The notes below the pieces were generated by a model. The model was not told where the DNA came from, ran no database searches, and saw only the letters and a program-made list of their open reading frames with translations. A stretch of DNA of 64,000 nt from Serinicoccus profundi (GTDB lineage Bacteria; Actinomycetota; Actinomycetes; Actinomycetales; Dermatophilaceae), in contig NZ_CP042862.1 of NCBI RefSeq assembly GCF_008001015.1, positions 868,001 to 932,000 on the forward strand, written 5' to 3'. Of the stretch, positions 55,008 to 64,000 are shown piece after piece. The position numbers were made by a program, and so were the translations under genes. The first letter of the stretch is position 1. Each line of letters opens with the position of its first letter.

Positions 55008-56300
55008 TCACCGACCGCGATCTGCCGGGAGGGGCGCGCCGATGCCGGGCACCCCGAAGAGTGTCGGAGCGGGGAGACCGAGATCCGGGCGGGCGAGCCG
55101 GGCGAGGACCAGCGCCGTCCCCGCGAGCCCCTGGAAGAGGCCGTAGCCGCCGCGGGTCCGCTGGCCGGTCGGCCAGAGGTGCACGTCGTCCCCGAGGACC
55201 TCGGCGACTGCCAGGGCCGCGGCCCCGGCGACCTCGAGCTGCTCGGTGGCCCCCCAGGCGTCGGTGGCGGAGGCGAGGACGTCCAACGGTCCGCCGAGGC
55301 CGTGGCAGAGCGTCAGCCCGGCATCACCGGGGTCGACCCGAGCCGACGCCGGGCCGGAGGTCTCCAGCTGCCGCCGGGCTGCCGCGGCCGCCTGCTCCAC
55401 CTGCTCCCGGCAGAGCAGCACACCTGCCTCGGCCTCGCTGCGCAGCGCCGTCGCCGGCACCCCCAGGTCCACGCCCGCGTCGGCGAGCCGGGCCAGCTCC
55501 AGGCGCGCGGCGGCGACCCCGGCCGTGCCGTGGCACCACATCACCGGGTGGGTCGGTGACTCCTCGCGCAGGTCGGGCCAGCCGAGCACCCGGTCGGACC
55601 AGCCGCTCTCCCACCACCACGCCCGCCGGAGCCGCTCGCGGACGGCGTCCACGAGGGGTCCGCGCGGGTCGGTCGCCAGCCAGTGACCCAGCGCGAGCAG
55701 GACCCCGCTGCTGCCGTGCGCCAGACCGGTGAGCGGGCGGGCGGGCTCGCCGCCGGGGTCCGGCGGGCCGGGGTAGGCCCACCCCTCGCCCTCCGGACGT
55801 CCGCAGTCGAGCAGGGCGCGGACGATCGGCGTGGTCATCTCCGCAGGCGACGCGAGGGTGAGCGCCGCGAGCAGTAGACCGGACAGTCCGTCCAGATGGT
55901 CGCTCGACCCGGCGAGCCGGGCGGGGGAGGGCAACGGCCCCCCTGCACCGGTCACGGCGGCGCGCGCCACCGTGATCCCGGCCTGCCCGTCCAGCAGCCC
56001 GGACGGGTCCTCCGGGCGGGTCAGGTCCGAGGGCATCGCCGCCCTCGCGAGCTGCTCGACCTCTCCAGGACGGTCGTGCAGCGGCGCCAGCAGGTGCAGC
56101 GCCCAGGCGATGCCGGCGGCGCCGTCGTAGACCTCCGCCCCACCGACGTGCAGGACCGGCGTGGTCTCCGCACCGCTGCGCGACCACGTCGCCCACCCGA
56201 CCCGGTCCGCGTCGCGCAGCGCCGCGTCGGCCACGGCGCGGGTCGCCGCCCGGGCGAGCTCCTCGAGGCCGACCACGGTGCGGTCCGGTGCGGTGCTCAT
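55008..56300 (-). CDS. LanC-like lanthionine cyclase
   Basis: A 430-residue protein with the LanC alpha-toroid pattern: GLAHGSSG (192-199), WCHGTAG (255-261) and LCHGLGG (331-337). By analogy to nisin cyclase the zinc ligands are Cys256, Cys332 and His333, and His195 is the conserved GxxHG His. LanC proteins catalyse or stabilise addition of Cys thiols to dehydro-amino acids. ATG 56300 overlaps the stop of the HopA1-family gene (ATGA). It is the last of four coupled genes. No dehydratase domain is fused to it; the upstream kinase and HopA1 protein may supply dehydration. Confidence 0.9.
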   Translation of the reverse strand: MSTAPDRTVVGLEELARAATRAVADAALRDADRVGWATWSRSGAETTPVLHVGGAEVYDGAAGIAWALHLLAPLHDRPGEVEQLARAAMPSDLTRPEDPSGLLDGQAGITVARAAVTGAGGPLPSPARLAGSSDHLDGLSGLLLAALTLASPAEMTTPIVRALLDCGRPEGEGWAYPGPPDPGGEPARPLTGLAHGSSGVLLALGHWLATDPRGPLVDAVRERLRRAWWWESGWSDRVLGWPDLREESPTHPVMWCHGTAGVAAARLELARLADAGVDLGVPATALRSEAEAGVLLCREQVEQAAAAARRQLETSGPASARVDPGDAGLTLCHGLGGPLDVLASATDAWGATEQLEVAGAAALAVAEVLGDDVHLWPTGQRTRGGYGLFQGLAGTALVLARLARPDLGLPAPTLFGVPGIGAPLPADRGR

Positions 56301-57184
56301 ACCGACCCCCGACGCAGGTGCGGCCGGAGGTCGTCGATCCCGGCCGCGATGAGGCCGCGACGACCCGCCAGCACCGCGTCCTGCGCCTGCCCGTCCCGCA
56401 GCCACGCGGCATACCCGTCGGCGAGCGCGGCACACCGGTTCTCCCCGAAGCTCGCGCCGTCACCGTCGTCCTGCGCCCAAGAGAGGCCGGGGCTCACCGC
56501 GGCGGTGAGCGGCGGCCGCTGCGGATCGAGGAGTCCGTCGGTGGCGGAGGCCAGGGCCTCCAGGGCCGCGCCGGCCTCCTCGTCGGGCAGGTAGACGACA
56601 ATCCGGTCCGGACGGGTCAGCGTGTCGGGGTCCAGCGCGCACTTGAGCAGCCAGGGTCCGGGCCGCGCGGCGAGGGCCTCGACGGCGCGGCCGACGGCGC
56701 GCCCGAGGCTGTCCAGCCGCGCGCAGAGGTAGATGCGGGTGAGTGGCTCCGGGGGGACCGGGTGCACCCAGGTGAGCGACCACGTGCGCCACCACCTCTC
56801 CGCGCGCACCGGACCACCGACGGGGGGTATGAGGATCTCGTCCCCCGCCCGGGGCGGCAGGGAGGTCCGCGGGTCGCCGGGGCGACGGGTCCACCGGCCC
56901 GGGAGGACGGCGTGGTGCCGGCCGTCCGCGTCCCGGACGACAAGCCCGCCCGCCGGGTCCACCCGCCGGACCGTGGCCGCCGACCAGCCGCCGACGGTCA
57001 GCGCCCGGGCGTCGAGCAGTCCGGCCAGCGGGGGGCCGACGGGAGTGGGCCGCTCGGTGACGGGCGCGGCATACCAGAGGGAGTAGAGCCGGGCGGCGAG
57101 CTCGGCCGGGGCGCTGCGGACGCTCGCCGGTCCGCTCCGGGCGACCTCGGCCGCCTCGGCGAGGGCGCGGGCCACGGTGCTCAT
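56297..57184 (-). CDS. HopA1-family protein, putative phospho-Ser/Thr lyase
   Basis: A 295-residue protein resembling the T3SS effector HopA1 family: RLYSLWYAAP, WWRTWSLTWVHP, RIYLCARLDSLGRAV, WLLKCALDPDTLTRPDRIVVY, and the end motif GASFGENRCAALADG. Proteins of this family act as the lyase of class V lanthipeptide and thioviridamide-type pathways, eliminating phosphate from Ser/Thr after a kinase has acted. Placement between an APH-like kinase and LanC supports that role here. Both ends overlap neighbours by four bases. Confidence 0.82.
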   Translation of the reverse strand: MSTVARALAEAAEVARSGPASVRSAPAELAARLYSLWYAAPVTERPTPVGPPLAGLLDARALTVGGWSAATVRRVDPAGGLVVRDADGRHHAVLPGRWTRRPGDPRTSLPPRAGDEILIPPVGGPVRAERWWRTWSLTWVHPVPPEPLTRIYLCARLDSLGRAVGRAVEALAARPGPWLLKCALDPDTLTRPDRIVVYLPDEEAGAALEALASATDGLLDPQRPPLTAAVSPGLSWAQDDGDGASFGENRCAALADGYAAWLRDGQAQDAVLAGRRGLIAAGIDDLRPHLRRGSV

Positions 57185-58074
57185 GAGGCCAGCACCTGCT
57201 GGACCCGGCCCCAGGACACGAGGTCGCTCAGGGCGCTGCGGGTGTCGGACATGAGGTCGTGCGCGAGCCGGAGACCGGGGTGGTCCATGCCGGGGCCGGA
57301 TCCGGCCGCGTAGGCGTCGAGGAAGCCGTGCCGGGCCGCCTCGTCGTCGGCGAGGCTCAGGCAGTCGTCCATGACCCGCAGCGCGCAGACGACATCCCAG
57401 GACGGGTCTCCCAGGCCGCCGTCCTCGAGGTCGATCAACCGGGTCGTGGCGGTCTGGCCGCGCCCGGTCACCAGCACGTTGGCCGCCGACAGGTCGCCGT
57501 GGATCCAGTGGCTGCGCCGCCACTGCCGGCCGGCCCGCCGCACCGTGCACGCCTCCTCGGTGCTGCCCTCCAGGACCCGCGCGGCCAGGTCCGCCGCGAG
57601 CGTCCCGTCGGGAGCGCTGAGGACGCTCGCCGGCGCTTCTCCCGTGATCGGCCACGGGCGGGTCGCCTCAGGGACGGCGCCCACCGGTCGGGGATGCCGG
57701 TGCAGCGCGGCGAGGGTGGTGCCGAGCGCACGGGCCACCGGCACCGGGTCGTGGGGAAGGGCGTCGTGCAGCGGTATGCCCGGGATCGGCGCGGTCCAGA
57801 CCGCGTCGTCGTCGGCGTGCAGCAGCCGCGGGACGGGTGCGCCGAGCAGCCCCCGCAGGACCGCCGCCTCCCGAGCGGCGGTCTCCAGTCCGTCCGTGGC
57901 CGTCGCTTGCCCCTGCTGCTTGACGTAGGCCACCACGACGCCGTCCACCTCGAGCCGGTGGACGAGGTTGCTGCGCGAGCAGGGCACCAGCGTGACAGCG
58001 CCGCCGAGCACGTCGGCGCAGGCGACCACCCCCTGCGTGATCGCCTGCGCCAACAGGCCCGGAGCGCTCCGCAT
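57181..58074 (-). CDS. APH-fold kinase of the lanthionine module
   Basis: A 297-residue phosphotransferase: VVVAYVKQQGQ has the ATP-site Lys; IHGDLSAANVL (catalytic Asp194, Asn199) and RLIDLEDGGLGDP (Asp215) are the kinase motifs. In class V lanthipeptide and thioamitide clusters, APH-like kinases phosphorylate Ser/Thr of the precursor. The neighbouring HopA1-like and LanC genes make that the best reading; an antibiotic kinase is less likely. ATG 58074 overlaps the protease stop by one base (TGATG). Confidence 0.85.
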   Translation of the reverse strand: MRSAPGLLAQAITQGVVACADVLGGAVTLVPCSRSNLVHRLEVDGVVVAYVKQQGQATATDGLETAAREAAVLRGLLGAPVPRLLHADDDAVWTAPIPGIPLHDALPHDPVPVARALGTTLAALHRHPRPVGAVPEATRPWPITGEAPASVLSAPDGTLAADLAARVLEGSTEEACTVRRAGRQWRRSHWIHGDLSAANVLVTGRGQTATTRLIDLEDGGLGDPSWDVVCALRVMDDCLSLADDEAARHGFLDAYAAGSGPGMDHPGLRLAHDLMSDTRSALSDLVSWGRVQQVLAS

Positions 58075-59396
58075 CACACCGACCCGTCCTGCTCCGCCTC
58101 GTCGAGCTCCTGGGCGACCTGGTCGAGGGCGGCGTGGTAGCCCGCCCACCAGGACGCGTCGTCCGACTGCTCGTCGACCGGCTCCTCCCATCCCTGCTCG
58201 TAGGGCCTCTGCCAGCCGCCGCACACCCGGCTGAGCGTCGGGCAGATGCGGCTGTCCGGCGGCAGACACTGCGGGATGCGGGTCAGCCGCAGCGGCGGGC
58301 AGTCGATGTAGGGGCGGGACCGCAGCACCGGTGGGCAGCTCACGAACGGTCTCGTAAGCCTGGTCCCGGGGCACCACGGCTCGGTCCGCGTGGGGCAGAG
58401 CACCGTGATCCGCGACCGCAACGTCGGTGGGACGACGAGTCGGGGCGGGTTGAGGGTGACCTGCAGCTCGGAGAGCACCGAGGCGATGGGGTTGGCGAAG
58501 GTCAGACTGCCGTCCCGCGCACCGGCGAAGAGCAGACCGACGACCTGACGGCCGGCGTTCATGACCACCGAGCCGGAGTCGCCGCGGTCGGAGAACCGGG
58601 CGGTGCCGGCGGCCGGGCGGATCGACACCTGGCGGCGCAGCGTGCGCATCCCGACGCCGTCGCCGTAGTCCAGCGTGACGGTCGCGTCGACCGAGACCAC
58701 CTCGCCGTGCGTGTGCTCGGTGGTGCGGCCGCGCTTCTGGACCGCCATCCCGGCCACCGCAGGAGTGCTGCCGACGACGCCGCCGATGTCGACGACCTCG
58801 TCGGCCCAGACCTCGTCACCGTCCAACCGCACGACCGCGCCGTCGACCTGCTCGGAGATCACTCCACGGGTCAGCGTGCCGACCTGGTCGACCGCCGGGT
58901 TGCCGCTGTCGAAGCGGCCCGGCTGCAGGACGGTCTCGCCCGCGGTCCACGAGGTGTCCACGCAGGCGACGTGGAAGTTGGTGAGCAGGCTCACCGCTCC
59001 GGTCGTCGTGTCCCGCACGAGGGCCCCGGCGGTGCCGGCGTTCTGGTGGCGGGAGGGGCCGATGCTGATGCCGCCCCGGATGGTCGTGTGCTTGCTCGTG
59101 TCGCTCAACGGGTCGCCGGCGTACAGCCCCGGCCCGCCCTGCAGCTCGATAACGAGCTCCTGGACGTCCGTGGGGATGCCGTCCAGCTCGGCCGGCACCT
59201 TCTGGCTGCGCGCCACCTTCGAGGGCGCCACCTTCTTCTCGACGTAGACGACGATGCTCATCTCGCCGGTGGGCTTGCCGTCGCTGATCTTCTCGCCGAT
59301 GTCGACTCCCACCACGCCGTCGAGGGCGAGCAGCTCGTCCTCGACCTGTTCCTTGGTGGGGCGGATCCTCGCCGCGGCTACCGCGTCGTGCTCCAT
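58074..59396 (-). CDS. Trypsin-like serine protease with Cys/Ser/Thr-rich C-terminal segment
   Basis: A 440-residue protein. Residues about 10-85 form an N-terminal domain (EEQVEDELLALDGVVGVDIG-like, with YVEKKV); the S1-type protease domain spans about 105-315 with His142 (TNFHV), probable Asp185 (VDGAVV) and Ser274 (RGDSGS). Residues 325-395 hold seven Cys (334, 342, 354, 366, 377, 385, 392), each with Ser/Thr two to five residues before it, and many Pro/Arg. An acidic helical tail ends it. No signal peptide. It is the first gene of the kinase/HopA1/LanC operon, with AGGAGGT before ATG 59396; its Cys-rich segment may be their substrate. Confidence 0.85.
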   Translation of the reverse strand: MEHDAVAAARIRPTKEQVEDELLALDGVVGVDIGEKISDGKPTGEMSIVVYVEKKVAPSKVARSQKVPAELDGIPTDVQELVIELQGGPGLYAGDPLSDTSKHTTIRGGISIGPSRHQNAGTAGALVRDTTTGAVSLLTNFHVACVDTSWTAGETVLQPGRFDSGNPAVDQVGTLTRGVISEQVDGAVVRLDGDEVWADEVVDIGGVVGSTPAVAGMAVQKRGRTTEHTHGEVVSVDATVTLDYGDGVGMRTLRRQVSIRPAAGTARFSDRGDSGSVVMNAGRQVVGLLFAGARDGSLTFANPIASVLSELQVTLNPPRLVVPPTLRSRITVLCPTRTEPWCPGTRLTRPFVSCPPVLRSRPYIDCPPLRLTRIPQCLPPDSRICPTLSRVCGGWQRPYEQGWEEPVDEQSDDASWWAGYHAALDQVAQELDEAEQDGSV

Positions 59397-59570: not shown

Positions 59571-61322
59571 ATGCCCCACCGTGATGCCGTCGATCTCGCC
59601 CTGCCCTCCTCGCTGCTGCGTCGCCACGACGCACGCGTGCTCGACCCCGCGACCGCCCCCCGCGAGCTGGACCCGCGCACCGGTGACAGCCTGCCCGCGC
59701 CGTCCTCAACCGTCTACCTCACCACTCGCCTGCTCGTGGCGGGTCTGCTGGGGCTCTCCGCGGTCGACCGGATCGAGGAGCTGCAACGCGTGCTGCGGGA
59801 GGCGGGGTATGCCGTCTCGCTGCGGCCGGACGCCGCCGACGACGCCTTCGGCCGGTGGCTGCTCGTCGCCGTCGAGTCTGGTGCTGACGCGGGCGTCGGC
59901 AAGGAGTTCGAGCAGGTGCGCAGCGCACCGATGGACCCCGAGGACCCGGTCACCCGGATCGACCCGGGGCTGCGGGTCGGGGAGGTCGGCATCGAGGAGA
60001 TCGACGAGGGGTATGCCTCCCGCGTCTACGTCGTGCCCGACGCCGGGGTGCAGGAGCCTGACCCGTGGTCGCTGCTGCTGGCCGCCCGCGCCGCAGGGGT
60101 GAAGGGCGTCGACCTCGAGCACCTGGTGCTCCCGGGGGGTGGCGGGCTCTACTGGGGCGGTCAGGGTGGCGGGCTGTACTGGGGCGGTCAGGGTGGCGGG
60201 CTGTACTGGGGCGGCCAGGGTGGCGGGCTGTACTGGGGCGGCCAGGGTGGCGGGCTGTACTGGGGCGGCCAGGGCGGCATACCCGGCGTCGCGCCGGACC
60301 GGACCCCCGTGCAGCTCGCGCTGCCCGACCCCACACGACCTGCTCGGCTGCGCAGGCACCCGGTCGTCGTCATCCCGGACACCGGCCTCGGCGAGCACCC
60401 GTGGTTCACCGGCTCCGACCTCGCCGTGCAGCTGCGCTCGCTGCTCGGGTGGCCGATCCTCCCCGGGGGGCGACCGACCCCGTGGCCGGAGGGCACGGGG
60501 GTCGTCGACGAGCTCACCGGTGCCCTGGACCCGCTCTCCGGGCACGGCACCTTCGTCGCCGGCGTGGTCCGTCAGGCGGCTCCCGGTGCCCGCATCGTTG
60601 CGCTGCCCGTCCTGGACTCGGCCGGCCTGGCCGCGGAGCAGGACGTCATGCGCACCCTGACGGTGGTGCTCGTGCTGCACCTCATCAGCCAGTCCCAGGG
60701 CCGCGAGACCTTCGAGGAGTCGGGTGGGGTGGTCGACGTCCTCAACCTCTCGATGGGGTTCTACCACCAGGACGGCGAGGTGACCCACCACCCGGTGAGG
60801 TCTCTGGTGGACCTCTTCGGGCGCGCCGGGGTCGGCGTGGCCGCGGCGGCCGGCAACCAGGCGACCACCACGCCGATGTATCCCGGTGGGTGGGCCGCGC
60901 AGGCCGGCACCGACCCGGACCCCACCGGTCCGGTGCCCATGGTCTGCGTCGGGGCCCTCAACCCCGACGGGTGCACGGTCGCGATGTTCAGCAACGCGGG
61001 CCCCTGGGTGACCACCCACCGCCCCGGGGTCAACGTCGTCAGCACCCTCCCGGTGACCTTCGACGCCTCGGCGCAGGCGCTCCGCGCCACGGCGTCGCCG
61101 TCGACGCCGGACCAGGTCAGGGCCACACCGGACCCGGACAACTTCGCCGGCGGGTTCGGGGTCTGGAGCGGCAGCAGCTTCGCGGTGCCCAGGCTGGCCG
61201 GCCAGCTCGCGCACGAGGTGGCAGCAGCGATGGCCGACGGCTACGAGGGCGACGCGGCCAAGGAGATGTGGCGACGGGCCGGGCAGGGACTGGCCCGGCT
61301 GCTGGAGGAGGACGAATGCTGA
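59571..61322 (+). CDS. Subtilisin-like (S8) serine protease with GLYWGGQGG repeats
   Basis: A 583-residue protease. Residues about 45-185 are a non-catalytic N-terminal domain; residues 190-234 are five 9-residue repeats (GLYWGGQGG register); the S8 domain begins about 255. Catalytic Asp lies in VVIPDTGLGEHP, His in LSGHGTFVAGVV, Asn region AAAGNQ and Ser in WSGSSFAVP. No signal peptide or membrane helix, so it is probably cytoplasmic. GGAGG precedes ATG 59571 at ideal spacing. It starts a coupled plus-strand operon with an ECF sigma factor, a small protein and a TPR/CHAT-type gene. Confidence 0.9.
   Translation: MPHRDAVDLALPSSLLRRHDARVLDPATAPRELDPRTGDSLPAPSSTVYLTTRLLVAGLLGLSAVDRIEELQRVLREAGYAVSLRPDAADDAFGRWLLVAVESGADAGVGKEFEQVRSAPMDPEDPVTRIDPGLRVGEVGIEEIDEGYASRVYVVPDAGVQEPDPWSLLLAARAAGVKGVDLEHLVLPGGGGLYWGGQGGGLYWGGQGGGLYWGGQGGGLYWGGQGGGLYWGGQGGIPGVAPDRTPVQLALPDPTRPARLRRHPVVVIPDTGLGEHPWFTGSDLAVQLRSLLGWPILPGGRPTPWPEGTGVVDELTGALDPLSGHGTFVAGVVRQAAPGARIVALPVLDSAGLAAEQDVMRTLTVVLVLHLISQSQGRETFEESGGVVDVLNLSMGFYHQDGEVTHHPVRSLVDLFGRAGVGVAAAAGNQATTTPMYPGGWAAQAGTDPDPTGPVPMVCVGALNPDGCTVAMFSNAGPWVTTHRPGVNVVSTLPVTFDASAQALRATASPSTPDQVRATPDPDNFAGGFGVWSGSSFAVPRLAGQLAHEVAAAMADGYEGDAAKEMWRRAGQGLARLLEEDEC
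60138..60272 (+). repeat. 27-bp in-frame tandem repeat, five copies, in the S8 protease gene
   Basis: Units start at 60138, 60165, 60192, 60219 and 60246; they differ only at two or three third-codon positions (ctc/ctg, ggt/ggc). They encode the Gly-Leu-Tyr-Trp repeats between the N-terminal and protease domains. Near-identity at DNA level points to recent expansion and possible length variation between strains. Confidence 0.95.
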
Positions 61323-61924
61323 CCGACGACGAGACCGAGGTGGAGGCCCACGCGGACCCACCCTCGCTGGGGCAGCAGGCCGGCGCCTGCTTCCACCGCT
61401 ACCGCGAGGGGCAGGACCAGGCGCTGGGGGAGCTGGTCGACCTGGCCACCCCGTTGCTCTGGCACGTGGCGCGCGCCCACGGCTGCGACCGGGAGAGCGC
61501 CGAGGACGTGGTGCAGGACGTCTGGATGCGCCTCGTGGACCGGGCGCACGACATCCGCGAGAGCGAGGCGGTCCTGGGCTGGCTCGTCGTCTCCGTCAAG
61601 CGGGAGAGCTGGCGGGCCGCGAGGATGGCCCGGCGCACCAGCCACGACCCCACCGGCACCGTGGATCCTGGTGGGACCGACCCGGGGCCGGAGGCGTTGG
61701 CGGTGCTCACCGAACGCCAGCAGCTGCTGTGGGCAACCGTGCAGGAGCTCTCGGAGCGCTGCCGGCAGTTGCTGCGCATCGTCGCCTTCTGCGACCGACC
61801 CGACTACGACGAGGTCTCGGCGGCACTCAACATGCCCCGGGGGAGCATCGGCCCGACCCGGGGGCGATGCCTGGACAAGCTGCGACGCTCGCTGGTCGCC
61901 GACGAGAGGTGGGTGGGCAGATGA
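61316..61924 (+). CDS. ECF-type RNA polymerase sigma factor
   Basis: A 202-residue sigma-70 family protein. Region 2 contains CDRESAEDVVQDVWMRLVDRA (about 58-78) and VLGWLVVSVKRESWRAAR; region 4 contains LSERCRQLLRIVAFCDRPDYDEVSAALNMPRGSIGPTRGRCLDKLRR, read here in parts, with a helix-turn-helix. ATG 61316 overlaps the protease stop by seven bases. No classical anti-sigma gene follows. It may control this cluster. Confidence 0.88.
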   Translation: MLTDDETEVEAHADPPSLGQQAGACFHRYREGQDQALGELVDLATPLLWHVARAHGCDRESAEDVVQDVWMRLVDRAHDIRESEAVLGWLVVSVKRESWRAARMARRTSHDPTGTVDPGGTDPGPEALAVLTERQQLLWATVQELSERCRQLLRIVAFCDRPDYDEVSAALNMPRGSIGPTRGRCLDKLRRSLVADERWVGR

Positions 61925-62430
61925 CTACGGTGAACGGGCCCGACGGGCCCCAGGGGACGGGTCTGGGGCTGGCCCCGCTGGACGAGGGTGACCTGTCGGT
62001 CCTCGCCGAGCTGAGGGAGACCGTGACCCGGCTGGACCCCTGCCCGGCCGGTCTGACCGAGCGCATCGGCTTCGCCCTGACGGTCCGGGCGCTTCAGGCC
62101 GAGGTGGCCGAGCTGACCCGTCATCCGGGGGCGCTCACGCGCGGCGACGGCGATGACGAGCCCGACCAGGCGACGACGGTGACCTTCAGCACCGACAGCG
62201 TGAGCATCATGGTGACGGTGACGGCCGGTCGCGACGGCACCGCGCGGGTGGACGGGTGGATCACCTGCGAGGCGGACGAGGTCGAGCTCGGCAGGCCGGA
62301 TGGCGGCTCCGAGCGGGTGGAGGTCCAGGACGGTCGCTTCGTCTTCGGGTCGATCGCCTGCGGTCCGGCCTACCTCGTCGTGCACCCGAGGGGCGAGCGG
62401 ACCGTCATCACCCCGACCTTCAGCATCTGA
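61921..62430 (+). CDS. Small protein with beta-rich (carboxypeptidase-regulatory-like) C-terminus
   Basis: A 169-residue protein starting four bases inside the sigma gene (ATGA). The N-terminal half is helical and acidic (LAELRETVTRLDPCPAGLTERIGFALTVRAL) and the C-terminal half is beta-rich (TVTFSTDSVSIMVTVTAGRDG, VDGWITCEADEVEL). No transmembrane helix. Proteins of this type follow ECF sigma genes in actinobacterial CHAT clusters; it could restrain the sigma factor, but no anti-sigma motif is seen. Confidence 0.7.
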   Translation: MTTVNGPDGPQGTGLGLAPLDEGDLSVLAELRETVTRLDPCPAGLTERIGFALTVRALQAEVAELTRHPGALTRGDGDDEPDQATTVTFSTDSVSIMVTVTAGRDGTARVDGWITCEADEVELGRPDGGSERVEVQDGRFVFGSIACGPAYLVVHPRGERTVITPTFSI

Positions 62431-62437
62431 GTGGCCC

Positions 62438-64000
62438 ATGCCCCAGGGAACGGACGCCTCCACCACGGTCGGGAGCCTGTTCGCAGCCGGACGCTCGGCC
62501 AACGTCGAAGGTCGTCCGGCAGAGGCTGAGCGGCTGCTGCGGCGTGCCCTGCGCACCGTCCGGGCGGAGCGCCCTGACCGGGTCCCCGGGTTCGACTCCG
62601 TGGCCGACGGGGAGGCGTCGGCCACCGAGGCGGAGGTGCGCCTCCTGCTCTCGCTGAGCACCTCGCTGGTGCAGCGGCACGGCGTGGCCCGGGCGCTCGA
62701 GACGGCCGACCAGGCCCTCGGGCTGGCGGCCAGCGACGGGTTGCGGCCCGAGGTGCGCGCCGACCTGCTGGCCAAGTGCCGGCTCCAGCTGGCGATGATC
62801 CACGGACGCACCGGTCACGCCGACACCGCGCTCGCGCACCTGGACGAGGCGATGGTCTCCTTCGACCAGCTCGACCCGGTGGACCGCTTCAACCTGCTGC
62901 TGTCCCGGGGAGCGGTCCGGACCGACGGCCCGGACCCCGCGCAGGCCGAGGTCGACTTCGCCGAGGCGGCGCGGATCGCGCACGACCACCACCTCGCCGT
63001 CCAGGAGTTCATGGCCCGGCACAACCTGGCGCAGACCGTCGCGGTGTCCGGCGACCTCCCCCGCGCCCTACGGTTGTTCCGGGACATCGAGCGGCTGGGC
63101 GGTGGCGCCTCGGTGGCCGTGGCGCTCCACGGCCGGTCCAAGGTCCTGCTCGACGCCGGCCTCGTCGACGAGGCCCGCGAGATGCTCCTGCGGGCGGCAG
63201 AGGAGGCCGAGCGCACCGGTCAGCGGTTGATCGCCGGCGAGGTCCAGGGTGACCTCGCCATGGCCGAGCTCGTCGAGGGGCACCATGCCGCCGCGGCGCG
63301 CACGGCGATGAAGGCCCGCCGCTCCCTGCAACGTCGGGCCCCCGGGTTGCGCCGCCGCGCGGAGCTGGTGCTGCTCGACGCCCGTCGCCGGCAGGGAGGT
63401 CGGCGCGCGGAGGTGGTGGATCGCGGACGAGCTCTCGTCGAGGCCTTCGACGCCGACGGCGACCGCGTCGCCGCGGACCTCGCCCGGCTCGTCGTCGCCG
63501 AGACCGAGGTCGACCGCGGTCGGACGGTCGAGGCCGTGCGACTGCTGCGGGCCACCGCCGACCTCACCCATGTGGGCTCGCTCAGCACCCGGTTGCGGGC
63601 CCGGGGCGTGCTGGCGTCCGCGGCCCGTGCCGCCGACGACGCCCCGACGGCCCGGCGCCACCTGCGGGCGGCTCTGGTCGACCTCACCGAGACCCTCGGG
63701 GGCAGCTCGAGCCTGGAGCTGCGGGCGGCCACCCACGTCTACGCCCAGGACCTCGCCCAGCTCGACCTCGCGGTCGCCCCGGAGACGCCACGGGAGACGC
63801 TGCTGGCCGTCGAGCGCTGGCGCGAGGCCGCCAGCCGGTCACCGGCCGTCCGCCCTCCGCAGGATCCCGAGCTGGCACGGCGCACCACCGTGCTGCGCCA
63901 CCTGCGGCAGCAGGTCCGCGAGGATCTCGACCGCGCCCACCGGCTCCGGGGTCGGGTGCGAGAGCTCGAGCGGTCCGTGGCGGCGCTGTCGTGGTCCGCG
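62438..64000 (+). CDS. TPR-repeat protein, probably the N-terminal part of a CHAT-domain protease; 3' end outside window
   Basis: The frame is open from ATG 62438 to the window end: 521 residues, no stop. The whole visible part is alpha-helical with TPR-like repeats (LFAAGRSANVEGRPAEAERLLRRAL-type units, read in parts). The last 60 residues (LAVERWREAASRSPAVRPPQ, then LRHLRQQVREDLDRA) match the helical linker that typically precedes a CHAT caspase-like domain. The catalytic domain would lie beyond 64000. It starts seven bases after the previous stop, so it belongs to the S8/ECF operon. Confidence 0.75.
   Translation, partial: MPQGTDASTTVGSLFAAGRSANVEGRPAEAERLLRRALRTVRAERPDRVPGFDSVADGEASATEAEVRLLLSLSTSLVQRHGVARALETADQALGLAASDGLRPEVRADLLAKCRLQLAMIHGRTGHADTALAHLDEAMVSFDQLDPVDRFNLLLSRGAVRTDGPDPAQAEVDFAEAARIAHDHHLAVQEFMARHNLAQTVAVSGDLPRALRLFRDIERLGGGASVAVALHGRSKVLLDAGLVDEAREMLLRAAEEAERTGQRLIAGEVQGDLAMAELVEGHHAAAARTAMKARRSLQRRAPGLRRRAELVLLDARRRQGGRRAEVVDRGRALVEAFDADGDRVAADLARLVVAETEVDRGRTVEAVRLLRATADLTHVGSLSTRLRARGVLASAARAADDAPTARRHLRAALVDLTETLGGSSSLELRAATHVYAQDLAQLDLAVAPETPRETLLAVERWREAASRSPAVRPPQDPELARRTTVLRHLRQQVREDLDRAHRLRGRVRELERSVAALSWSA

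What the first reader, a model, noticed from the sequence alone, without database searches (positions are those of the whole stretch)
55008..59396. Split lanthionine-synthetase module (APH-like kinase, HopA1-like lyase, LanC cyclase) coupled to a trypsin-like protease instead of a precursor peptide
Four minus-strand genes overlap each other by one to four bases. The last three encode a kinase with HGDLSAANVL, a HopA1-family protein and a LanC protein with all zinc ligands. Established: class V lanthipeptide systems use kinase, HopA1-type lyase and cyclase as separate proteins. New here: no short leader/core peptide gene is visible, and the first gene is a full-length intracellular serine protease. 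This suggests a machinery that installs thioether rings on a protein and not on a small peptide.
Basis: partly seen in the sequence, partly recalled or inferred. Interest (0 to 1): 0.95.

Follow-up and report, generated by a model that had tools for sequence, protein, structure and literature searches.

The report
Protease with a lanthionine-ring tail
A bacterial protease appears to carry, as its own C-terminal tail, the peptide that three neighbouring enzymes would stitch into a chain of thioether rings, and relatives of this protease carry quite different tails that go with different or missing ring-forming enzymes.

Summary
In detail: four overlapping minus-strand genes encode a trypsin-like protease, an APH-type kinase, a HopA1/LanY lyase and a LanC with its zinc ligands. 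The interpretation needs one correction: the precursor is not missing, it is the last 124 residues of the protease. This tail holds a repeated [S/T]-[R/K]-x3-4-Cys motif (73 of 95 cysteines in 11 representatives). Among 61 homologous loci, Cys/Ser/Thr tails occur in 26 (21 distinct); 25 of 26 show kinase+HopA1+LanC, and the exception (L018) is a contig that ends right after a kinase-like gene. In the DNA held for the other 35 loci no HopA1 or LanC was found. Seven relatives with Lys/Asp/Glu-repeat tails have a graspetide-type ATP-grasp gene instead; seven with PFTE-like repeats have neither. Tail type and enzyme set thus switch together, though with few independent switches. Best reading: class Vb enzymes install about seven thioether rings on the protease's own tail. 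Inhibition of a protease by the tail is the function I favour, only inferred. No chemistry was measured. Ten searches of open-licence papers listed no report of it.

The parts
58449..59396 (-). Protease domain of the trypsin-like (NAL1-like) serine protease, residues 1-316; triad His142, Asp185, Ser274
   Evidence: Profile matches to NAL1 and streptogrisin B among solved structures; triad columns H 49/49, D 47/49, S 49/49
58221..58448 (-). Predicted thioether-ring core: 76-residue tail segment (residues 317-392) with 7 Cys and 13 Ser/Thr
   Evidence: Tail and core cut from alignment; [ST][RK]x3-4C spacing and S/T at -5/-6 from Cys
58089..58157 (-). Conserved C-terminal helix (WWAGYHAALDQVAQELDE), possible recognition element for the modifying enzymes
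   Evidence: Pattern present in 19 of 19 Cys-tailed and 0 of 15 others of the first set; similar endings in 5 of 7 PFTE-type tails, by eye; H414-436 in a model of poor quality
57181..58074 (-). LanK-like APH-family kinase
   Evidence: PF01636 6.7e-16; invariant K, E, HGD, N, D in 15
56297..57184 (-). LanY-like HopA1-family phospho-Ser/Thr lyase; R150, K181, R191 align with Arg, Lys, Arg of LxmY
   Evidence: PF17914 2.3e-12; invariants in 15; LxmY 2.1e-14 by sequence; model pLDDT 93.2, best PDB match LxmKY 2.7e-16
55008..56300 (-). LanC zinc cyclase
   Evidence: PF05147 3e-24; C256, C332, H333 and H195 invariant in 14
59571..61322 (+). Divergent subtilase (S8) with tandem repeats (5x GGGLYWGGQ)
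   Evidence: PF00082 4.5e-9; repeats; found in 22 of 26 Cys-tail loci
61316..61924 (+). Sigma-70 family factor (ECF-like by size, recalled)
   Evidence: Sigma70_r2 3.1e-9; start chosen by rule
61921..62430 (+). Small protein of unknown family, conserved partner
   Evidence: No Pfam hit; found in 20 of 26 Cys-tail loci
62438..64000 (+). TPR-CHAT-like protein, runs past the window end (857 aa in L002)
   Evidence: ORF; the TPR and CHAT labels are by eye and recalled, no family search was run on it

Best explanation
The four genes are a self-contained system in which the substrate of a class Vb lanthionine machinery is the C-terminal tail of a cytosolic trypsin-like protease. Inferred steps: the APH-type kinase (LanK) phosphorylates Ser/Thr in the tail; the HopA1-type lyase (LanY) eliminates phosphate to give Dha/Dhb; the zinc cyclase (LanC) adds the Cys five or six residues downstream, giving a chain of about seven (window) to ten small (methyl)lanthionine rings, most with an Arg/Lys next to the ring-forming Ser/Thr. 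The conserved WAGY helix at the very C terminus, or the folded protease domain, acts as the recognition element in place of a leader. More speculative (about 0.35 on its own): the ring chain works as a covalently attached, proteolysis-proof inhibitor or gate of a serine protease, its own or the neighbouring subtilase. The divergently encoded subtilase, sigma factor and CHAT-like protein would then belong to the cascade that relieves or answers it. Shown: gene content, intact motifs, the tail repeat, and its close co-occurrence with the enzymes. Inferred: the chemistry, the ring direction, the recognition element, cytosolic location (no signal peptide by eye) and the function.
For: (1) Repeat: S/T at -5 from Cys 47 times against 17.4 expected and at -6 32 against 17.1, 0 of 2000 shuffles each; 73 of 95 Cys sit in [ST][RK]x3-4C. 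(2) Co-occurrence: 25 of 26 Cys-tail loci have kinase, HopA1 and LanC; 0 of 35 other loci have HopA1 or LanC in the DNA held. The exception L018 ends 1,070 bases after the protease and shows a kinase-like frame there (tblastn 2e-5, HGD by eye). (3) Nested absence: three proteins without tail and without the enzymes sit inside the Cys-tailed clade (fork 99/96, 100/99). (4) Switching: 7 of 7 Lys/Asp/Glu-tailed relatives have an ATP-grasp gene and none of the lanthionine genes (TIGR04187 at 4.7e-40, 6.3e-41 and 1.2e-36 in the three scanned); 7 of 7 PFTE-type relatives have no tail Cys, no HopA1 and no LanC, and 4 of 7 have a kinase relative (hhalign 97.9%). (5) In six Serinicoccus 7 of 7 tail Cys columns are invariant against 9 of 27 other-residue columns. 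(6) HopA1 protein closest to LxmY of the lexapeptide dehydratase by sequence and model. (7) No Cys-bearing precursor ORF in the gaps of the window; one LanC and one HopA1 in the genome.
Against: No mass data. The co-variation is phylogenetically thin: 2 independent pairs on well-supported branches (3 on all), too few for significance. Tail classes were drawn up after seeing the tails, and two of seven Lys/Asp/Glu tails were added by eye. Absence of enzymes means absence in the stretch held (about 8-17 kb). S/T is also enriched at +3/+4 from Cys (32 and 30 against about 17.6), so ring direction is open. The shuffle test ignores relatedness (4 of 11 representatives are Knoellia/Janibacter). Small ORFs with 2-4 Cys occur in the protease-subtilase gap of 5 of 15 loci; they differ in strand, length and position and look like chance, but I did not align them. 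The position of CaoY His57, judged through LxmY, seems to be Tyr here. Foldseek's match to LxmY has a modest TM-score (0.58, rmsd 7.3). The protease model failed (pLDDT 37), so nothing structural supports tail geometry or inhibition. WAGY-like endings also occur on 5 of 7 PFTE-type tails, so that helix may not be a lanthionine-specific recognition site. The place of L018 in the tree is unsure.
Confidence: 0.8

Rival explanations
1. Releasable peptide: the tail is modified as described, but the protease domain acts as a giant leader that cuts itself off, releasing a free polycyclic lanthipeptide that is the active product (antimicrobial or signal).
For: The core sits near the C terminus as in ordinary precursors; the protease family is beside cyclophane-type rSAM and HExxH modification genes in two Rhizobium plasmids, one with a separate repeat protein, as a maturation protease would be.
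Against: No transporter or immunity gene among the window's operon and divergent genes that were scanned; further neighbours in the window look like folC, ndk and mre genes by eye. Neighbours of the other loci were not scanned for transporters. The WAGY segment is conserved after the core, so release might need two cuts.
Confidence: 0.25
2. Modified tail as structural or tethering element: the ring chain stiffens or multimerises the protease (and the glycine-rich repeats do the same for the subtilase), with no inhibitory or peptide-hormone role.
For: Tandem repeats recur on both the subtilase (GGGLYWGGQ, GWGDGI, GYLQGV) and, in L034, on the protease tail itself (4x GWGDGIS); PFTE-type repeats stand in place of the Cys repeats in relatives.
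Against: Does not explain why chemically different cross-linking enzymes come with different tails.
Confidence: 0.2
3. The Cys-rich tail is an unmodified metal-binding or disulfide region, and kinase, HopA1 and LanC act on something encoded elsewhere.
For: Cys-rich tails can bind metal; no chemistry has been measured here.
Against: Tail-enzyme co-occurrence and joint absence; S/T-R-x3-4-C spacing; no other LanC or HopA1 in the genome; a disulfide role does not fit a protein without an evident signal peptide (by eye).
Confidence: 0.08
4. The protease is the maturation protease of an ordinary class V lanthipeptide whose short precursor was missed.
For: Proteases accompany lanthipeptide clusters; L051 shows an APH-HopA1-LanC cluster with two short precursor-like ORFs; 5 of 15 loci have a small ORF with 2-4 Cys in the protease-subtilase gap.
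Against: No Cys-bearing ORF in the window's gaps; protease, kinase and HopA1 genes lie within -4 to 86 bases of each other in 17 of 17 loci measured; the Cys tail itself would be unexplained.
Confidence: 0.06

Closest known systems
Class Vb lanthipeptide synthetases (stand-alone LanK PF01636, LanY PF17914, LanC), with class Va lexapeptide LxmKY and cacaoidin CaoKY as studied relatives (PMC12291118, PMC9486802: passages)
   Same: Same three enzyme families as separate proteins with catalytic residues kept; HopA1 protein closest to LxmY by sequence and fold
   Different: The precursors named in those passages are peptides with leader and core; here the candidate core is the tail of an intact serine protease, with many short similar repeats
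Graspetide ATP-grasp branches 7 and 8 (PMC8939145: passages)
   Same: That paper reports ATP-grasp loci tied to peptidases, with no predicted precursor and, in branch 8, a truncated ATP-grasp partner; our Lys/Asp/Glu-tailed relatives show protease + about 255-aa partner + ATP-grasp
   Different: There the precursor was supposed to be encoded elsewhere; here the protease tail is the candidate. That our loci belong to branch 7 or 8 was not tested; similarity of the partner to the ATP-grasp protein is weak (hhalign 34%)
NARROW LEAF 1 (plant trypsin-like protease)
   Same: Profile similarity over about 130 residues of the N-terminal part
   Different: Tails and gene neighbours of NAL1 were not examined
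Borosins such as OphMA (recalled, no call)
   Same: Core peptide fused to the C terminus of an enzyme
   Different: There the fused enzyme is the modifying methyltransferase; here it is a protease and the modifiers are separate
QhpE/QhpC quinohaemoprotein maturation (recalled; the subtilase matches QhpE at 30.2 bits, far under its 165-bit cut-off)
   Same: Thioether cross-links on a protein subunit and an intracellular subtilase
   Different: Radical-SAM chemistry, unrelated enzymes

Membership tests
Class Vb lanthipeptide system | Stand-alone LanK kinase of PF01636 | tested here: met
   59.2 bits against 23.2; catalytic residues invariant
Class Vb lanthipeptide system | Stand-alone LanY lyase of PF17914 | tested here: met
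   47.6 bits against 22.7; LxmY is the best solved relative
Class Vb lanthipeptide system | Separate zinc LanC | tested here: met
   85.7 bits against 23.2; C, C, H invariant
Class Vb lanthipeptide system | Separate short leader-core precursor peptide | tested here: not met
   No Cys-bearing ORF in the window's gaps; the candidate core is the protease tail
Class Vb lanthipeptide system | (Methyl)lanthionine in the product | not testable with these tools
   Needs mass spectrometry
Trypsin-like (S1) serine protease | His-Asp-Ser triad | tested here: met
   49/49, 47/49, 49/49 rows; the Asp was picked by its D-G-A-V context, by eye
Trypsin-like (S1) serine protease | Pfam Trypsin cut-off | tested here: not met
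   15.3 bits against 20.6; remote member by profile search of solved structures
Graspetide (for the Lys/Asp/Glu-tailed relatives only) | ATP-grasp peptide maturase beside the core | tested here: inconclusive
   TIGR04187 at 137.7, 140.6, 126.5 bits against a 350-bit cut-off: clearly related, below the curated threshold

The most novel reading that the evidence does not exclude
There is an unrecognised class of self-tailed proteases: one cytosolic trypsin-like protease fold carries interchangeable C-terminal repeat tails, each cross-linked by its own peptide-modifying enzymes (thioether rings by LanK-LanY-LanC, side-chain lactam/lactone links by ATP-grasp, and perhaps cyclophane chemistry on a separate repeat protein), so that post-translational ring chemistry serves as a swappable covalent inhibitor or switch of an intracellular protease. 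The same idea would supply the missing precursors of the peptidase-linked graspetide branches reported as precursor-less.
Probability: 0.5. Interest if true: 0.93.

Novelty: new variant of a known kind. Interest (0 to 1): 0.87.

Why it matters
If true, lanthionine chemistry is not only for making small peptides: it would be used to remodel the tail of an intracellular enzyme. The comparison across relatives suggests that different RiPP chemistries are swapped on one protease scaffold, which could explain peptidase-linked modification loci that seem to lack a precursor (PMC8939145, passages) and would make them testable. It would also give a natural example of multi-ring stapling on a folded protein, useful for engineering, and a handle on the subtilase/sigma/CHAT loci that accompany it.

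Tried and rejected
Rejected: a missed short precursor in the window; loss of active sites (catalytic residues conserved); protease as mere bystander (tail and enzymes co-vary); known defence system (no PADLOC hit for five proteins). Led nowhere: the AlphaFold model of the protease (pLDDT 37, not used further); class-level search with the protease profile (3 of 394 genomes at 1e-30: the own one and two weak ones); a literature search for FxsB-type systems. Of the 34 match rows, 20 were fetched with flanks; the other 14 are the own genome, already held, and 13 weak rows whose neighbourhoods I did not examine (one, L062, only as a short stretch). S1-pocket specificity of the protease was considered and left open because gapless residue counting is unreliable.
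Full report
OBSERVATION. The window lies in a single-contig actinobacterial genome (3.48 Mb); its closest named relatives by the protease are Serinicoccus (82-87% identity). Four minus-strand genes at 59396-55008 encode a trypsin-like protease, an APH kinase, a HopA1-family protein and a LanC. They overlap by 1, 4 and 4 bases. LanC C256, C332, H333 and H195 are invariant in 14 relatives; the kinase keeps Lys, Glu, HGD, Asn and Asp in 15 (numbering there includes one extra leading residue); HopA1 keeps R150, K181 and R191 in 15. In the profile alignment to LxmY (9dk1 chain B, E 2.1e-14) these positions fall on Arg, Lys and Arg, with nearly the spacing of Arg187, Lys219 and Arg229 of CaoY, residues discussed as catalytic in PMC9486802 (passages). 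The CaoY sequence was not at hand, so this equivalence is inferred; CaoY His57 seems to be Tyr here. The HopA1 model (pLDDT 93.2) has the three LxmKY entries as best PDB matches (E 2.7e-16 to 2.8e-15, TM 0.57-0.59, rmsd about 7), followed by HopA1 itself and lanthipeptide synthetases.

THE MISSING PRECURSOR. Relatives of the protease were sought in a collection of 84,980 species genomes by peptide patterns (33 confirmed stretches, 32 loci). With the own genome and G247 (L049, from a HopA1 search of 396 phylum genomes) this gives 34 proteins. Cut at window residue 316, 19 of 34 have a tail with at least six Cys (7-10 in the core) and 15 of 34 have 0-1. The tails are arrays such as VTRPAVCNIVTRAISCPATRIPVC or VTRDPVNCWPVTRDPRGC. 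In 11 representatives with 95 Cys, Ser/Thr stands at -5 in 47 cases (17.4 expected) and at -6 in 32 (17.1 expected), 0 of 2000 shuffles reaching either; [ST][RK]x(3-4)C accounts for 73 Cys; 92 of 172 Ser/Thr are followed by Arg/Lys. Enrichment at +3 and +4 (32 and 30) leaves direction open. In six Serinicoccus 7 of 7 Cys columns are invariant against 9 of 27 other-residue columns; in seven Knoellia/Janibacter 6 of 9 against 1 of 34. All 19 tails end in a WAGY-like motif, none of the 15 others does. In the window no Cys-bearing ORF fits the gaps; in 5 of 15 loci the protease-subtilase gap holds small ORFs with 2-4 Cys, differing in strand and position (not aligned).

CO-OCCURRENCE. Of the 19, 18 show kinase, HopA1 and LanC downstream (17, L049; LanC of L013 is cut by its contig). 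L018 ends 1,070 bases after the protease, filled by a kinase-like frame. Of the 15 without the tail, 0 show any of seven partner gene sets at E 1e-3. A second sample, not chosen by tail, came from 396 genomes of the order: 33 have a protease match at 1e-30 (34 match rows). I fetched 20 of 34 rows: 7 Cys-tailed, 7 of 7 with the three enzymes; 13 not Cys-tailed, 0 of 13 with HopA1 or LanC. Pooled (61 loci): Cys/Ser/Thr tail 26 (21 distinct), 25 of 26 with all three enzymes; Lys/Asp/Glu tail 7 (five by the script's threshold, L028 and L029 added by eye), 7 of 7 with ATP-grasp and partner gene, 0 of 7 with kinase, HopA1 or LanC; PFTE-type tail 7, 0 of 7 with HopA1, LanC or ATP-grasp, 4 of 7 with a kinase-like gene; nuclease fusion 2; no tail 19, 0 of 19 with any of these, 2 of 19 with radical SAM and HExxH genes. 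The tail classes were drawn up after seeing the tails, and absence refers to the DNA held.

PHYLOGENY. On the protease-domain tree (49 rows) the tail types need 6 changes against a shuffled mean of 24.6. Three tail-less, enzyme-less proteins (Citricoccus, Micrococcus, a Propionibacteriaceae MAG) lie inside the lanthionine clade (100/99; 99/96), which fits joint loss or joint gain; the finer forks around them are weaker. The place of L018 is unsure. Formal independence is weak: 2 pairs on supported branches, 3 in all.

SWITCHED CHEMISTRY. Cellulomonas, Microbacterium and Nakamurella relatives have, after the partner gene, an ATP-grasp protein related to peptide maturases (TIGR04187 4.7e-40, 6.3e-41, 1.2e-36 in the three scanned, all under the 350-bit cut-off; ORFs found in 7 of 7). 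PMC8939145 (passages; 2022) describes ATP-grasp branches 7 and 8 with peptidases but no predicted precursor, one with a truncated ATP-grasp partner, and says that all graspetides characterised so far are protease inhibitors; a 2026 paper on newer graspetides reports no growth inhibition for one of them (PMC13097080, passages). I infer that the protease tail is the missing precursor there too; that our loci belong to those branches is untested. In four PFTE-type relatives the downstream gene is related to our kinase by profile (97.9%, 5e-13) but the three scanned have no Pfam hit and, by eye, lack the kinase N-lobe and second metal Asp: perhaps what is left when HopA1, LanC and the cysteines are gone.

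CONTEXT. In the Cys-tail loci the subtilase is found in 22 of 26 and sigma, small protein and CHAT-like gene in 20 of 26; L017 and L096 are cut by a contig end and L009 has little upstream DNA, but L011, L018 and L097 lack them in 5-8 kb. Sigma, small protein and CHAT-like gene, without a subtilase hit, are also beside 7 of 7 PFTE-type loci. In Arthrobacter L011 a contractile sheath and gp19-type tube gene lie 1-4 kb upstream. The subtilase carries tandem repeats whose unit changes between genera; in L034 the GWGDGI unit stands in the subtilase and in the protease tail.

MECHANISM. I take it as likely (0.8) that the tail is the substrate of the three enzymes. What the ring chain does is open. 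I favour cis-inhibition or gating of a serine protease (about 0.35), by analogy with ring-bearing graspetide inhibitors and because the tails sit on a protease, over a released peptide (0.25) or a structural role (0.2).

LITERATURE. Ten searches listed no paper whose title or abstract start describes a lanthipeptide core fused to a protease. Only listings were seen, plus passages of PMC9486802, PMC12291118, PMC7794033, PMC8939145 and PMC13097080. Only open-licence PMC papers are covered; the class V cyclase paper PMC9621591 was not held.

Noticed in passing
window 60138-60272 (subtilase gene 59571-61322): Five tandem copies of GGGLYWGGQ inside the subtilase; relatives carry units such as GWGDGI, GWGQGV or GYLQGV in the corresponding part.
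   Followed up: partly
L034 protease tail: The protease tail of Knoellia sinensis carries four GWGDGIS repeats; its neighbouring subtilase carries six GWGDGI repeats.
   Followed up: partly
L026-L031, L033: Same protease with Lys/Asp/Glu-repeat tail followed by a roughly 255-aa partner and an ATP-grasp gene related to peptide maturases: a likely protease-fused graspetide.
   Followed up: partly
L099-L105: Same protease with long PFTE (L099: PFTQ) repeat tails beside sigma, small protein and CHAT-like genes; a degenerate kinase relative is found in four of seven.
   Followed up: partly
L114, L117 (Rhizobium plasmids): Tail-less protease next to a cyclophane-type radical SAM maturase and a HExxH peptide hydroxylase; L114 also has a separate protein with EMHDQTHSEGG repeats.
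   Followed up: partly
L112, L113 (Tsukamurella and Streptomyces plasmids): The protease-like domain is part of a longer protein annotated as DNA/RNA non-specific endonuclease.
   Followed up: no
L011 4293-6789: Contractile tail sheath and gp19-type tube genes lie just upstream of the lanthionine operon in Arthrobacter.
   Followed up: no
L053: A HopA1 gene and, by eye, a LanC-like reading frame without the CHG motif lie beside CHAT, sigma and subtilase matches, with no match to this protease.
   Followed up: no
L051 9755-10484: APH-HopA1-LanC cluster with two similar 92- and 100-aa ORFs holding Cys near the C terminus: looks like an ordinary class Vb cluster.
   Followed up: no
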